Shown: one piece after another, positions 1-24,845 of the stretch | How positions within the stretch are numbered: the stretch's first letter is position 1 | How the letters are laid out: each line of letters begins with the position of its first letter | IMG/VR virus record: IMGVR_UViG_3300008266_000125 | Coordinates: 1 to 41,822 of that record | From: a virus | Strand: one strand, 5' to 3' | Length of the DNA: 41,822 nt | Made by a program: the position numbers and the translations under genes | The notes under the pieces: generated by a model | Database searches by the model: none | Told to the model about the DNA's origin: nothing | Seen by the model: the letters and a program-made list of their open reading frames with translations, nothing else

Positions 1-25
1 GACAAATATAGTTTTATTTATTTGA
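1..25. repeat. Direct terminal repeat, left copy (circular assembly overlap)
   Basis: The first 25 bases are identical to the last 25 of the window. The copy contains the stop codon of the last lysis gene. The simplest reading is an assembly overlap from a circular or circularly permuted molecule, giving a unit genome of about 41,797 bp. A true 25-bp terminal repeat on the virion DNA cannot be excluded from sequence alone. Confidence 0.85.
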
Positions 26-665
26 AAAGAAAAAATCCCGTTGCAAATCCGATTCCGAAATTGAACAATCTTGTTTCATGAAATGGTTTTGGGATCTTGA
101 CTTCTATTGTTTGAACATTTGTTGTTTTGATCAAATCATTCGAATTTGTGATGTCCGTTGTCAATGTTTGACGTCCGAAAATCCATTTTCTTTTGAACCC
201 GGTGATGATCGTTGTTTCATTCGGAATTTCAATGTCCTTCAATTCAAATTTCTTTTGACTGAATTCCCAATTGAATTTAAAATCTTTATTGTCATATTTT
301 CCAACACGTTCAAATTCACACGGGATTGTGTCGGTAAAATAAACCGGAACCGAATCAATTTGAATTTCGGTTTTATATTTTACAATTGATTTCACACGCG
401 AAAATTCATCCGTCAATTTTTTCAATTTTAAATCATTTTGCAAAAGTTCTTGTTTCAATAACTTGTTCGATGTTTCCAAAACGATTTTCGACGCGGTTTC
501 CGCGCCTAACTTGTTTTTGAAATACTTTGTTTCATCATTCAAACTTTTCGTTGCTGAAATCGCTTGATTTTTATTTTCTGTACATTTTGTAATTGAAAAA
601 ATTAAAATGATTAATAAAATCAAAATCACAACGTCTTTCAAATATTTTTGGAACTGATCTTTCAT
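18..665 (-). CDS. Spanin-like membrane-anchored coiled-coil protein (lysis)
   Basis: A 215-aa protein, last gene of the late operon. An N-terminal hydrophobic segment (about residues 11-27) follows a short charged tail and ends near a cysteine that lacks a proper lipobox. Residues about 45-100 are charged and helical, likely coiled coil. The middle is beta-prone, and the last 15 residues are again hydrophobic and glycine-rich. A membrane anchor, a periplasmic coiled coil, and a place directly after the endolysin fit a Rz-like spanin that disrupts the outer membrane at lysis. The hydrophobic C-terminus is unusual for a classical i-spanin and could span to, or insert in, the outer membrane. No separate o-spanin is seen. 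Function is inferred from architecture and position. Confidence 0.55.
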   Translation of the reverse strand: MKDQFQKYLKDVVILILLIILIFSITKCTENKNQAISATKSLNDETKYFKNKLGAETASKIVLETSNKLLKQELLQNDLKLKKLTDEFSRVKSIVKYKTEIQIDSVPVYFTDTIPCEFERVGKYDNKDFKFNWEFSQKKFELKDIEIPNETTIITGFKRKWIFGRQTLTTDITNSNDLIKTTNVQTIEVKIPKPFHETRLFNFGIGFATGFFLFK

Positions 666-674
666 GGTTTCTTT

Positions 675-1178
675 TTATTTTGGTAATCTTCGAATCACCG
701 ATTTCATCACTTGTTTTAATTGGTTTGCGTAATCGGGCGCGGTTGCATAACCGGCGCGGGCGATTTCTTCAAAGAATCGTTCCGGGTTGTCCTTGTGCTT
801 TATTGCTTCCGAATATCTTTTGTTTTTCAAAAAGAAATTGACATGATCTTCAAACGCTATTGACGCGGACGGGTACTTTCGGAACCAATCTTTGACAATG
901 TATTTGAATTTATTTCCAATTTTCGTGATGCTGATCACTTGTGGAAACTTCACATTGTTTCGTGATAAATATTCCGTCGTTGTGATCAATTGTTCGTTTC
1001 CATTTACGCCGTCCGTGTCCTTAATTCCAAAGAAATTATTTCCGACGGCTTTCGCGCCCCAACCCGATTCCAACGCGCCTTGTGTCAAAGGAATCAAATA
1101 ATGAAATCCCGTTTTCGCTTCAACCTTTTTCGCTTCGGGTAAATACGTTTTGACAAATTGTTCCGGTGTGATTTTCAT
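675..1178 (-). CDS. Endolysin, glucosaminidase (GH73/FlgJ-like)
   Basis: A 167-aa single-domain enzyme. Residues 29-52 carry the family core (IPLTQGALESGWG, then GNNFFGIK); Glu37 is the expected catalytic acid of GH73 N-acetylglucosaminidases. The C-terminal half has the usual tail of the family (KYPSASIAFEDHVNFF and an ARAGYATAPDYANQL motif). It cleaves peptidoglycan glycan strands. There is no signal peptide or cell-wall-binding domain, so release to the periplasm should depend on the holin encoded just upstream. It sits between holin and spanin-like genes with 7-9 nt gaps, forming a lysis cassette. Confidence 0.9.
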   Translation of the reverse strand: MKITPEQFVKTYLPEAKKVEAKTGFHYLIPLTQGALESGWGAKAVGNNFFGIKDTDGVNGNEQLITTTEYLSRNNVKFPQVISITKIGNKFKYIVKDWFRKYPSASIAFEDHVNFFLKNKRYSEAIKHKDNPERFFEEIARAGYATAPDYANQLKQVMKSVIRRLPK

Positions 1179-1185
1179 GATGTTT

Positions 1186-1722
1186 TTATTTTAGTATTGA
1201 TTTTAATTTATTCAAAATACCTTCATTTACAATGTCAATAATTTTGTCCAACAAAATAAAAGGTTTGGACTTTTTACCAAATCGATCAAATTCGTTTTCA
1301 CCAATCGATTGAAGTTCTATCAAAATAACATAAACAAAAAAGATGAATTTAATTGACAAAATAATCGACAAAAGGAAATCAAAAGATTTCAAACGGATGA
1401 TTTCTTTTTCTAATGTCCAAAGGAACCAAATGATCAAAGTAAAAATTATAATTTTTTCAAATGCGCGCCAACCTTTTTTGGATTCAAATTCAAATTTTTC
1501 GCCGTCTTTTTCTTTTCTTGCCGTGTCGGCTTTTATTCCGGTATGTATATCAATAATGTTTATAATTAAAGCGATCAACCAAAGTGACGCGGTTACACCA
1601 AGAAAAAAACGTTCATGTATTGTTGATACAAAATTGATAAATGCTGAAATTAAACCGCCAATTGAAATTGATAAAAAATAAAATTCTTTGTGATAAATGA
1701 AGGATTGAAAAACTTGTTTCAT
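1186..1722 (-). CDS. Phage holin (holin_4-like)
   Basis: A 178-aa integral membrane protein. A longer reading frame runs upstream into the preceding gene, but the ATG at 1722 follows that gene's stop (1749) and is the likely start. Hydrophobic segments lie near residues 14-32, 37-58, 90-104 and 116-136. Between the second and third is the cytoplasmic loop typical of the TcdE/Cp-1-type holin family: an aspartate and TG pair (IIDIHTGIKAD), then a charged stretch with EFESKKGWRAFEK. It would form the membrane lesion that releases the endolysin and set lysis timing. Placement directly before the glucosaminidase supports the call. Confidence 0.75.
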   Translation of the reverse strand: MKQVFQSFIYHKEFYFLSISIGGLISAFINFVSTIHERFFLGVTASLWLIALIINIIDIHTGIKADTARKEKDGEKFEFESKKGWRAFEKIIIFTLIIWFLWTLEKEIIRLKSFDFLLSIILSIKFIFFVYVILIELQSIGENEFDRFGKKSKPFILLDKIIDIVNEGILNKLKSILK

Positions 1723-1748
1723 GTTTTTAATATTAGTTAATTTATATT

Positions 1749-2180
1749 TTAGTCCGGAATATTCAATTGACGTGAATAATAAAATCCACCAATCCAACGA
1801 ATCACGCGATGTGTGATCCAATTTTTCAGTTTCTTTTTTGGCGCAATCCCTTTTCGCCATTTCAATCGTTCATCATCCGCGAATTTCCTTGCTTCAAAAA
1901 TACTAAAATTATGACGTTCTAATTCATTTTTTTTATCAACCCACAATTTATCATGAATTAAATCACCAATGAACGCCGAATCAATTGGATACAATATTGA
2001 CCAAAATTTTTTCGGAATTGAAATCAAATCAGTTTCAAAACCTTTTTCAATCTTCAAAACATATCCATCCGACAAAGTGACGAAAATATCTTGATCAACT
2101 TTGAATCTTCTTTCGCTTTCGTGTTTACAAAGGAAAACCAACGGAATTTCCGTTGGTTGTTCTAAATATCCCAAAATCAT
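1749..2180 (-). CDS. DUF1353-like phage protein
   Basis: A 143-aa protein matching the DUF1353 pattern: a beta-rich N-terminus, the signature FETDLISIPKKFW (about residues 48-60), then a short helix ending in an HD dipeptide (DLIHDKLW, about 73-80), and a C-terminal helix with ADDERLKW. Members are common near tail and lysis genes of siphoviruses; the conserved histidine and aspartates suggest a small peptidase or metal site, but the role is unknown. Its start overlaps the preceding stop by four bases (ATGA), so it is translationally coupled to the tail gene before it. Confidence 0.65.
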   Translation of the reverse strand: MILGYLEQPTEIPLVFLCKHESERRFKVDQDIFVTLSDGYVLKIEKGFETDLISIPKKFWSILYPIDSAFIGDLIHDKLWVDKKNELERHNFSIFEARKFADDERLKWRKGIAPKKKLKNWITHRVIRWIGGFYYSRQLNIPD

Positions 2181-3139: not shown

Positions 3140-4905
3140 TTTGTGTATTTTAAAACGTTTGAATAAACAATATTTGAAGACGCGTCAACCGCTTTCAATC
3201 TTATTTCGTTGACACCAACAAACAAATCAATTAAGTAAACCGAATTTTCAGAAACCGAAATTCCCGACGGCAACCAAACGCCGTCAACGGCGGTTTGAAG
3301 TTCAATTCCGGTCAATGTGTTTGAATAGTTGCCAACATAAATTTCAATATTTGCATCGCTTCCGGTTCGATCTTCCGTTGAAATTGTATCAAACCAAACA
3401 ATTTCCGTGAATTCACCGGATCCCGTTGGACAAATTCCGCCAATATTCCAATTTGAATTTTCAATTGGTGCATGAATACGAACAATCGCGTTTTGTGGAT
3501 CTTCTAAACTTTTAAAGAAAACTAATTGACCAACACCCGTTGAAGGATTCCCCGTGTTGATTTGCGAATTTGGAATTCCTAAATTCAACAATTGATTGTC
3601 AAATGAATTTGATCCAACATAATTTGTTGTAAATGTTTGACCATTCCATTCGATTTCAATTTTTACCGGGACATCAATGACATTGAAATTCAATCCACAA
3701 TTTCCGGTTCCGGTTCCAAAGTTCATCAAGAATTCGAAAACACCCGTGTTTTGACCTTCATAAACAAACGATTCCGAACATGAAATTGAATTGGTTTGTG
3801 ATATTCCACCCGTCAAACCCGACAAAAATCCGTCATCATAAACCGAATTATTGATCAACGGATTTTCCGACAACATATCATTGTACCAAAAACCAACAAC
3901 ACATTTTGTTTCATCAAATAAAATTGTGTACTTTCTGTAAATTCTTGGTGAATTATAAACATTTAAGGCGTCAACGTCATTGACTAAAACTTCAAAAACA
4001 ACCTTCAAATTTTTGGTAAAATCAACGTCAATGAAAAACGCGCCGTCCTTTGATTCCAACAATCCATTCAAAACACTTGGTTTTTCAAATCCGATTTGCA
4101 TGATCCCGGATCCATAATTTGAACCCGAAATTGTTCCGATCGGTTTTCCGCCATGAAATGAATTCACATCATCAAATTCCAATCCCCAATCAAGAACAAA
4201 CGGATTGAAGGAATTTGGATTGTCGTCATCTGAAATTCTATTTTGTCCGTCGATGTTTGCTTTTGCAAATTTCCAATTCAAAGGCGTTTGACCAATCGAT
4301 GTTGTTTCGGCGAAAAATTCAGTTGTCAAAGTTTCAACGTTGTCAATTTTCCATTCCAACAATTTCACGCCCGATGACATTGAATTTTTTACATCATTCA
4401 ATAAATTATCGATGACAAAATATGATCGGACTTTTTCTTGACAAAAAAAGAAAGTTTCCGCTTTTAAATAATCAAGCGAAATCACATTTTCAAAACCATC
4501 CGTCACAATAATTTTCAAAGAAATTGAACCCGTCAATGATTCATATTTGTAAATTCTTTCAAAATTATTTTCGATTGTTTCGTTTGCTGACATACCATTC
4601 ACAACCAATGAAAATTGATCAATCAAATTCAATCCATTGAAAACACCGAACACAATTTTTGTGTCCGGTGAAAGTGATGTTTGTGGACGATAAACATCCA
4701 AGTTTATTTGAAGACGAATTCGATTGTTTGCGGGTTCCAATGTTCCCAATCCGCGTCGAAATTCAGTTGTTGACGAATCGGATTTCAAAACCAATTGACC
4801 GCCAATTGTTTCAATCGGAATCGTCGATCCGTTTATCCAATTGAATTCATCGTTTGTCGTCGAAAAATCAACGAATAAACTTTCGGTTAAATTATTATTA
4901 CACAT
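3136..4905 (-). CDS. Large tail-tip / appendage protein
   Basis: A 589-aa, Ser/Thr/Asn/Gly-rich, beta-strand-rich protein without signal peptide or membrane segment, typical of virion surface proteins. It contains several paired cysteines (for example ICPTGSG near residue 490). The last ~70 residues look like an immunoglobulin-like or carbohydrate-binding module ending in a repeated strand pattern (GVNEIRLKAVDASSNIVYSN). It sits after the receptor-binding-type protein and a 167-aa gene, and is coupled by ATGA overlap to the next gene. A role in host surface binding is likely but unproven. Confidence 0.6.
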   Translation of the reverse strand: MCNNNLTESLFVDFSTTNDEFNWINGSTIPIETIGGQLVLKSDSSTTEFRRGLGTLEPANNRIRLQINLDVYRPQTSLSPDTKIVFGVFNGLNLIDQFSLVVNGMSANETIENNFERIYKYESLTGSISLKIIVTDGFENVISLDYLKAETFFFCQEKVRSYFVIDNLLNDVKNSMSSGVKLLEWKIDNVETLTTEFFAETTSIGQTPLNWKFAKANIDGQNRISDDDNPNSFNPFVLDWGLEFDDVNSFHGGKPIGTISGSNYGSGIMQIGFEKPSVLNGLLESKDGAFFIDVDFTKNLKVVFEVLVNDVDALNVYNSPRIYRKYTILFDETKCVVGFWYNDMLSENPLINNSVYDDGFLSGLTGGISQTNSISCSESFVYEGQNTGVFEFLMNFGTGTGNCGLNFNVIDVPVKIEIEWNGQTFTTNYVGSNSFDNQLLNLGIPNSQINTGNPSTGVGQLVFFKSLEDPQNAIVRIHAPIENSNWNIGGICPTGSGEFTEIVWFDTISTEDRTGSDANIEIYVGNYSNTLTGIELQTAVDGVWLPSGISVSENSVYLIDLFVGVNEIRLKAVDASSNIVYSNVLKYTK

Positions 4906-23559: not shown

Positions 23560-24174
23560 TTACAATTCCGTTAATGGATTGAAATTTGGTTTGATAATTT
23601 CCAAATCATCCGACCAACCTTCCGACAATTGGAATGACATATTCACAATGTCTTTCGATCCATAACCGGAATTCGAACGATCCGAAACGAAAACCGATTG
23701 AATCGGGAATCCTTTTTTCTGATCCGTTGACACTTTCACAACTGCGATTCGTCCACCTTGTAAAAACAAATAGACAACCAAGTTTTTTTCACACATCAAT
23801 TTTTTCATTGCTTTTTCAGTTACCGACGGCAACGATTTGAAAACACATGAAAACGATGACGGGTTCACACCTTCGATTTCTTCAACACCATTCATTGTCG
23901 AGTTATCACCACCACCATTCGTGATTGCTTCACCCGCTTCAATAACCGGATCACCACCAATGATCGGCGTCACAACAATTTTCGTGTTGTCCGTTGCCGT
24001 CATTTTAGCTTGCCAAACCGATAAATTCAAAATATCCGTCGCCGGCGTTCCACCCGCGTCAAATAAATCACCAACCCTTTGGAATCCCAAACGTTGGATT
24101 TGTTTCAAATCAACACCACAATTTTCCGCGACGATTTCCGTCAATGCGCTTGGTGCGGGACAATTACAATCCAT
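23560..24174 (-). CDS. Virion protein, candidate major tail (tube) protein
   Basis: A 204-aa protein from the ATG at 24174. It is first in the head operon, behind its own promoter. The N-terminus is Cys-rich (MDCNCPAPSALTEIVAENCG), followed by a Gly/Thr-rich beta region (KIVVTPIIGG, GGGDNSTMNGVEEIEG) and a C-terminal strand pair (GWSDDLEIIKPNFNPL). This pattern matches proteins I associate with the major tail protein of Bacteroidota siphophages. No other tube candidate sits in the usual place between the tail terminator and tape measure. A head decoration protein is the main alternative. Confidence 0.5.
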   Translation of the reverse strand: MDCNCPAPSALTEIVAENCGVDLKQIQRLGFQRVGDLFDAGGTPATDILNLSVWQAKMTATDNTKIVVTPIIGGDPVIEAGEAITNGGGDNSTMNGVEEIEGVNPSSFSCVFKSLPSVTEKAMKKLMCEKNLVVYLFLQGGRIAVVKVSTDQKKGFPIQSVFVSDRSNSGYGSKDIVNMSFQLSEGWSDDLEIIKPNFNPLTEL

Positions 24175-24238: not shown

Positions 24239-24267
24239 CAAATTTATACAAAAAATTTCAATATCAA
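24239..24267 (-). promoter_or_regulatory. Late promoter of the head/tail operon
   Basis: Minus-strand TTG (24265-24267), 18-bp spacer, TAAATTTG (24239-24246), matching the Bacteroidota TTG/TAnnTTTG pattern. It lies just after the terminator of the exported-protein gene and gives a leader of about 58 nt before the 204-aa virion gene. Confidence 0.75.
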
Positions 24268-24276
24268 TAAAATAAA

Positions 24277-24307
24277 AAAATCCAACACGTTGAATGTGTT
24301 GGATTTT
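24277..24307 (-). terminator. Intrinsic terminator of the moron gene
   Basis: A perfect 12-bp stem (arms 24277-24288 and 24296-24307) with a 7-nt loop, followed on the minus strand by TTTATTTTATTG. It isolates the exported-protein gene from the head operon, whose promoter begins about 10 bp further on. Confidence 0.9.
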
Positions 24308-24328
24308 GATTTTATATTTGGTGATTTC

Positions 24329-24784
24329 TTATTCTAATTTGGCGACAAAAAAGGCGGGATCTTTTATGTTTGTTAAATCTATCCGACCGGAATCCGTCTT
24401 CATTGTTATCGATTTGACGGGACTTTTTTTCAACGTTTCTTTTTGTTTGTCGGTAAGTAAGAAAACGAACATCGAATTGGATCCACAATGAATTCCGTTT
24501 TTGTTTGTCATGACGACTTTGTTTCCGTCATCCAATACAAATTCGATTTGGCTTTGGTTGGTGATGCAATACGAAACCGCGTCCAACTTTGCCGACATCA
24601 TCGTTTCGCCGTGAATTGTTTTCAGTTCAACAACGAATGGAATTGTGTTTTCATCCGTTCCAAATGCCAATGTCGATTTGATTTCCATTTTTTCGAAATC
24701 TTCTTTGATCACATCAACTTGTTTTTCCATTGCGACCGCCGAAAACATCGTTCCAACGAGCGCGACAATTAAGATTTTTTTCAT
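24329..24784 (-). CDS. Exported moron protein (signal peptide, 151 aa)
   Basis: A 151-aa protein with a clear Sec signal peptide: MKK, a hydrophobic core to about residue 14, and an SAVA site, so cleavage is expected after Ala18. There is no lipobox. The mature part (~133 aa) is beta-rich and contains exactly two cysteines (SYC and HCG), which could form a disulfide in the periplasm. The gene lies between terL and the head genes but has its own promoter, whose -33 element overlaps the terL stop, and its own terminator. That is the hallmark of a moron. No family recognised; superinfection exclusion or host envelope modification are plausible but unproven roles. Confidence 0.8.
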   Translation of the reverse strand: MKKILIVALVGTMFSAVAMEKQVDVIKEDFEKMEIKSTLAFGTDENTIPFVVELKTIHGETMMSAKLDAVSYCITNQSQIEFVLDDGNKVVMTNKNGIHCGSNSMFVFLLTDKQKETLKKSPVKSITMKTDSGRIDLTNIKDPAFFVAKLE

Positions 24785-24816
24785 GTTTTTTTGCTTTTTA
24801 ATTATACAATAGATTT

Positions 24817-24845
24817 CAAATGTAATAAATTTATTTTAATATCAA
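24817..24845 (-). promoter_or_regulatory. Promoter of the exported moron gene
   Basis: Minus-strand TTG (24843-24845), 18-bp spacer, TACATTTG (24817-24824). The TTG overlaps the TGA stop codon of terL. Expected transcription start is about 26 nt before the ATG at 24784. Confidence 0.75.

What the first reader, a model, noticed from the sequence alone, without database searches (positions are those of the whole stretch)
24277..24845. Self-contained moron: exported protein with its own promoter and terminator between terL and the head genes
The 151-aa gene has a promoter whose TTG overlaps the terL stop (TTG, 18 bp, TACATTTG), a clear Sec signal peptide, a mature domain with exactly two cysteines, and a perfect 12-bp terminator. 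Right after it a fresh promoter starts the head operon. Genes framed like this in phages (morons) often alter the host envelope, for example by superinfection exclusion. I do not recognise the family, so it is the best candidate for a new host-interaction factor in this window.
Basis: partly seen in the sequence, partly recalled or inferred. Interest (0 to 1): 0.72.

Follow-up and report, generated by a model that had tools for sequence, protein, structure and literature searches.

The report
Exported cargo gene in phage slot
A small secreted protein of a Flavobacterium virus sits in a spot, between the DNA-packaging and head genes, where related viruses swap in different secreted proteins or none; it is therefore probably an optional tool acting on the host's envelope, but what it does there is not known.

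Summary
The 151-aa gene (24329-24784, -) has a Sec-type signal peptide, two cysteines, a Bacteroidota promoter overlapping the terL stop and a 12-bp terminator, followed by a promoter for the head operon. The window is a 41.8-kb relative of Flavobacterium phage tant8-1. The protein belongs to PHROG 13579, a phage family of unknown function (tant8-1 83%; Fpv5-type phages about 40%), with no Pfam, NCBIfam or PDB sequence relative. It folds with confidence as a beta-sandwich; the nearest solved fold is Bartonella IalB (Z 8.1), at best suggestive.

New here: the place upstream of the virion gene MP2 is a swappable slot. In 13 of 23 phages with the flavobacterial-type head module it holds a signal-peptide protein, from five unrelated families, against 4 of 245 other ORFs in the same loci. 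Close relatives have it empty or filled with a cytoplasmic gene. This supports "accessory exported cargo" (moron-type) and argues against a virion part. It does not support a recent or fully self-contained moron: composition is ordinary, the terminator also occurs without the gene, the family is old, and no lysogeny genes were seen. Superinfection exclusion is plausible but untested.

The parts
24329..24784 (-). 151-aa exported protein gene, PHROG 13579
   Evidence: ORF; phrog_13579 E 3.8e-31; tant8-1 gp037 83%, Fpv5-type about 40%
24731..24784 (-). signal peptide codons, residues 1-18 (MKKILIVALVGTMFSAVA), cleavage inferred after A18
   Evidence: Own heuristic; hydrophobic N-terminus kept in all five family members; residues 1-29 have pLDDT under 50
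24332..24697 (-). codons of the folded beta-sandwich domain, about residues 30-151
   Evidence: AlphaFold2 block means 76-98 pLDDT from residue 31; residues 37-106 nearly unchanged between window and tant8-1
24817..24845 (-). candidate promoter TTG-N18-TACATTTG of the gene
   Evidence: -7 box at similar distance in 11 of 14 slot genes; weak in tant8-1
24277..24307 (-). intrinsic terminator, 12-bp stem
   Evidence: structure conserved with changed sequence in L007 and L008; also found in phages without the gene
24239..24267 (-). candidate promoter TTG-N18-TAAATTTG of the head operon
   Evidence: box conserved before MP2 in 23/23 and 58/62 phages
23560..24174 (-). MP2 gene, major virion protein 2 (right neighbour of the slot)
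   Evidence: phrog_8193 E 1.1e-84; B40-8 MP2 40%; homologue found in phiB124-14 virions by MS (PMC3338817)
24842..26353 (-). terL, terminase large subunit (left neighbour of the slot)
   Evidence: PF03237, PF17289, phrog_38

Best explanation
The gene is optional cargo of a swappable slot between packaging and head genes. It is transcribed as a short unit from a host-type (sigma-ABfr) promoter, and the protein is exported through Sec, trimmed after about residue 18 and folded in the periplasm as a beta-sandwich, probably closed by a C73-C100 disulfide. There it most likely binds a host envelope component and gives the infecting phage an advantage over competitors, superinfection exclusion being the most likely single role. 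Shown from sequence: export signal, fold prediction, slot position, mosaic replacement by other exported proteins, promoter and terminator sequences. Inferred: disulfide, periplasmic site, separate transcript, envelope target. Guessed from analogy: superinfection exclusion (about 0.3 on its own).
For: Exported ORFs fill the slot in 13 of 23 flavobacterial-type phages against 4 of 245 other ORFs in the same loci (Fisher p 5e-13, rows not independent). Five families there share no detectable sequence similarity: A phrog_13579; B L025/L027/L028; C L023/L033/L040; D phage 1/32; E L034. On an MP2 tree slot content needs 11 changes (least possible 6), with sister pairs that differ, e.g. L024 empty / L025 family B and L026 cytoplasmic gene / L028 family B. 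terL runs directly into MP2 in B40-8, B124-14 and TCUEAP2 and in L021, L022 and L024. TAnnTTTG precedes 11 of 14 slot genes against 27 of 186. Sandwich model, mean pLDDT 80.9. No homologue in nine relatives' whole genomes except Fpv5.
Against: No functional data at all. Two GenBank records (FPSV-D19, FPSV-S20) call the protein 'structural', without stated evidence. Family A is kept by nearly all known isolates of its two phage groups, which would also fit a conditionally important function. The promoter is degraded in tant8-1, so a separate transcript may not be universal.
Confidence: 0.6

Rival explanations
1. It is a virion component (minor head or tail protein) encoded next to the major virion protein MP2.
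For: Directly upstream of MP2 wherever the family was found; labelled structural in two records.
Against: Has a Sec signal peptide, while tailed-phage heads and tails assemble in the cytoplasm (established knowledge). Relatives with the same head module lack it or carry unrelated exported proteins. The virion MS of phiB124-14, which has no gene there, found MP1, MP2 and ORF39 (PMC3338817). No structural Pfam or PHROG profile fits convincingly.
Confidence: 0.12
2. It is a late envelope factor that helps lysis or virion release (spanin-like or peptidoglycan-directed accessory) rather than excluding competitors.
For: Exported and next to the late operon promoter; unrelated small exported proteins could serve such an accessory role.
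Against: A candidate lysis cassette lies at the other end of the late operon: endolysin 675-1178 (PF01832) with hydrophobic-segment ORFs at 18-665 and 1186-1860. The gene has promoter-like and terminator sequences of its own, no lipobox and no enzyme domain match.
Confidence: 0.15
3. It is a phage member of an IalB-like family of exported beta-sandwich proteins that bind surfaces, taken from a bacterium.
For: Best solved fold is IalB of Bartonella henselae, 3dtd: Z 8.1, rmsd 3.7, 115 residues, next match Z 5.5; Foldseek probability 1.00 but E 0.028. IalB also has a signal peptide (PMC6299047).
Against: No sequence link in Pfam or PDB sequence searches; two peptide-pattern scans of bacterial genomes found no relative; Z about 8 can mean only a common arrangement.
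Confidence: 0.08

Closest known systems
PHROG 13579 (tant8-1 gp037 QHB40968.1; Fpv5 gp55 YP_009322432.1)
   Same: Same family by profile (E 3.8e-31), same slot 5' of MP2, signal peptide, two invariant cysteines
   Different: Window protein is 83% identical to tant8-1 and about 40% to Fpv5; no function known for any
Phage morons (single genes with promoter and terminator inserted between genes adjacent in relatives; PMC4378225)
   Same: Inserted between terL and MP2, adjacent in relatives; promoter-like and terminator sequences; patchy distribution
   Different: Ordinary base composition, terminator also present in non-carriers, phage appears lytic, family old
Exported superinfection-exclusion proteins (e.g. 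T5 Llp from own knowledge; Ltp lipoproteins, PMC3952083 abstract)
   Same: Small, exported, phage-encoded, accessory
   Different: No lipobox, no sequence relation seen, no exclusion data
IalB, invasion associated protein B of Bartonella (3dtd)
   Same: Exported beta-sandwich, nearest solved fold
   Different: No sequence similarity; IalB is a bacterial chromosomal protein tied to erythrocyte invasion

Membership tests
PHROG 13579 | Full-length profile match | tested here: met
   E 3.8e-31 over residues 1-150, profile 1-148 of 149
Phage moron | Single gene inserted between two genes adjacent in related phages | tested here: met
   terL-MP2 adjacent in B40-8, B124-14, TCUEAP2 and in L021, L022, L024
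Phage moron | Own promoter | tested here: inconclusive
   Promoter sequence present and enriched at this position, but degraded in tant8-1; no transcript data
Phage moron | Own terminator | tested here: inconclusive
   Strong terminator, but the same boundary carries one in non-carriers (15 of 23 overall)
Phage moron | Base composition different from neighbours (usual, not strict) | tested here: not met
   GC 38.4% against CDS mean 35.2%, sd 3.7 (terL 39.7, MP2 41.6); GC3 45.4% against 34.9%, sd 5.6
Phage moron | Patchy presence among relatives | tested here: met
   5 of 23 flavobacterial-type phages carry family A, 8 carry another exported family, 10 none
Superinfection exclusion protein | Exported or membrane protein | tested here: met
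   Signal peptide by own rule in the family
Superinfection exclusion protein | Expression blocks infection by related phage | not testable with these tools
   Needs experiment
IalB family | Sequence profile match | tested here: not met
   No IalB match in Pfam up to E 1 or E 10; none in PDB sequences up to E 10
IalB family | Same fold | tested here: inconclusive
   VIA Z 8.1, rmsd 3.7, 115 aligned
Virion structural protein | Present in purified virions | not testable with these tools
   No proteome of a carrier phage was found in the library
Virion structural protein | Needed by phages with the same head module | tested here: not met
   Absent from the slot in L021, L022, L024 and from the whole genomes of B40-8, B124-14, TCUEAP2, all with MP2

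The most novel reading that the evidence does not exclude
Siphophages of flavobacteria keep a dedicated, swappable slot between packaging and head genes for secreted proteins that act on the host envelope against competing phages. At least five unrelated secreted families take turns there, one of them made through a conserved +1 frameshift. The window's protein is an IalB-fold periplasmic member. The slot would be a ready source of new envelope-acting anti-phage or host-takeover factors.
Probability: 0.35. Interest if true: 0.62.

Novelty: new member of a known kind. Interest (0 to 1): 0.42.

Why it matters
Bacteroidota phages have few characterised host-interaction genes. A positional rule (the gene just 5' of MP2 in flavobacterial siphophages is often secreted cargo) gives a cheap way to find them by synteny even when sequences are unrelated. 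It also questions the 'structural protein' labels in some records. If any of the families excludes other phages, it would bear on phage cocktails against fish-pathogenic Flavobacterium.

Tried and rejected
Bacterial homologues: two genome-contig scans found none; these use short peptide patterns, so distant relatives could be missed. Genus- or family-wide genome searches could not be run because the window is a virus record. Plasmids: no match. Weak hits to Pseudomonas, Vibrio and Streptococcus phages at E 0.05-7 were taken as chance. Pfam and NCBIfam weak hits (HisZ-like, glucose dehydrogenase, a toxin B subunit over the signal peptide) are chance. Sigma-70 consensus sites are not informative in Bacteroidota. 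Recent acquisition from composition: rejected. Family B was folded to see whether it shares the sandwich: model poor (mean pLDDT 62.7), no fold match, so undecided. A virion proteome of a carrier phage was sought in the papers and not found.

Full report
WHAT THE WINDOW IS. The window is a 41,822-base virus record. It aligns at 81-90% DNA identity over most of its length with Flavobacterium phage vB_FspS_tant8-1, a siphovirus reported to be only capable of lytic replication (PMC7077304). Its head module (terL, MP2, portal, scaffold, major capsid protein) is shared with Fpv5-type phages of F. psychrophilum, phage 1/32, Croceibacter phages, Bacteroides phages B40-8 and B124-14 and an Elizabethkingia phage. 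The protein after the finding is MP2, a virion protein seen by mass spectrometry in phiB124-14 (PMC3338817).

THE OBSERVATION. Every stated element is present. The promoter TTG-N18-TACATTTG overlaps the terL stop. By itself the pattern is not significant (8 found, 4.3 expected on the strand), but its place is: 11 of 14 genes in this slot have TAnnTTTG within 110 nt upstream, against 27 of 186 other ORFs. The box matches the Flavobacterium -7 consensus TANNTTTG/TAHHTTTG (PMC6847099). In tant8-1 the element is degraded. The terminator folds well beyond chance in the window, tant8-1 and L007 (z -5.5, -4.6, -4.9) and more weakly in L008 (-2.2), with different stem letters. The MP2 promoter is conserved in nearly every phage looked at.

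WHAT THE PROTEIN IS. It belongs to PHROG 13579. Relatives were found only in phages: tant8-1, Fpv5-type phages and three IMG/VR contigs, L007, L008 and L035. Pfam, NCBIfam and PDB sequences give nothing credible. Residues 1-18 look like a Sec signal peptide, and the other members have a like N-terminus. C73 and C100 are invariant in all five aligned members. AlphaFold2 with four sequences gives mean pLDDT 80.9, with residues from about 31 on mostly above 80: a beta-sandwich with two short helices. The best solved fold is IalB (Foldseek E 0.028; VIA Z 8.1, rmsd 3.7, 115 residues). That stands above the next rows (Z 5.5), but is at the level at which a common arrangement cannot be excluded. Between window and tant8-1 the changes are concentrated in residues 1-36; residues 37-106 are almost unchanged, so the folded domain is under constraint.

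THE SLOT. I collected 80 virus loci with MP2 and read the gene just upstream. Among 23 phages with a flavobacterial-type MP2 (about 50% identity or more), 13 have a signal-peptide ORF there, against 4 of 245 other ORFs in the same loci. Among 62 other phages one does. The 13 fall in five groups without detectable similarity: family A (window, tant8-1, Fpv5, L030 = L007, L035), family B (L025, L027, L028, about 130 aa), family C (L023, L033, L040), phage 1/32 (130 aa) and L034 (145 aa). The rest have nothing between terL and MP2 or a gene without a signal peptide. On a tree of MP2 the slot content needs 11 changes where 6 is the least possible, and close pairs differ. The slot is therefore mosaic. 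The p-value treats related phages as independent and is only indicative; the same caveat holds for the promoter count.

MORON OR NOT. By the usual definition (PMC4378225) the gene is inserted between genes that are adjacent in relatives, with promoter and terminator sequences. Three points depart from the textbook picture. Base composition is like that of its neighbours. The terminator is a boundary also present in non-carriers (L021, L024, L029, L032, L037). The family is old and shared by 31 of 32 Flavobacterium records with this head module. I therefore call it moron-like cargo.

HOW IT MOST LIKELY WORKS. Shown by sequence: export signal, folded domain, slot, exchange. Inferred: periplasmic location after cleavage, disulfide, separate transcript. 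Guessed: binding of a host envelope component to exclude competing phages. Replacement by unrelated secreted proteins, and the presence of relatives without any, fit a competitive or host-interaction role better than a virion part. A lysis helper is possible, but the candidate lysis genes lie at the far end.

LIMITS. Signal peptides were called with a simple rule of mine, not SignalP. Lysogeny genes were not sought exhaustively in the window; the statement rests on tant8-1 and on the Pfam and PHROG hits seen. Absence from bacteria rests on peptide-pattern scans. No expression, localisation or phenotype data for this family turned up in what I could search.

Noticed in passing
L023:3570-3840, L033:3569-3842, L040:3581-3836 (slot upstream of MP2): A 42-43 aa exported ORF ends in all three at TTT CCC TAA; reading on in the +1 frame gives 85-91 aa proteins with alike ends (T/L-P-I-P/V-G-L) whose stops lie about 160 nt before MP2, as in the other slot families. 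Looks like a conserved programmed +1 frameshift; TTTCCCTAA occurs only 6 times in all loci held then; a further contig, L105, encodes the first 42 residues.
   Followed up: partly
L021 about 823-885, L022 about 3785-3865: Two relatives without the gene keep a TATATTTG box and a short unit of about 70 nt between terL and the MP2 promoter (terminator detected in L021 only), with no ORF: an emptied cassette or a small RNA.
   Followed up: no
L034:3360-3794: The exported protein in this slot weakly matches a major tail protein profile (phrog_9522, E 2e-4).
   Followed up: no
MK764438.1 and MK764447.1 (FPSV-D19, FPSV-S20): The homologue is labelled 'structural protein' while sister records with an equally matching protein say hypothetical; no evidence is given.
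   Followed up: partly
window 18-1860, minus strand: Candidate lysis cassette: membrane-anchored ORF 18-665, glucosaminidase endolysin 675-1178 and an ORF with hydrophobic segments at 1186-1860.
   Followed up: no
L089:5903, L090:6405, L092:6405: TTTCCCTAA also occurs downstream of MP2 in three related phages with about 47 codons open in the +1 frame.
   Followed up: no
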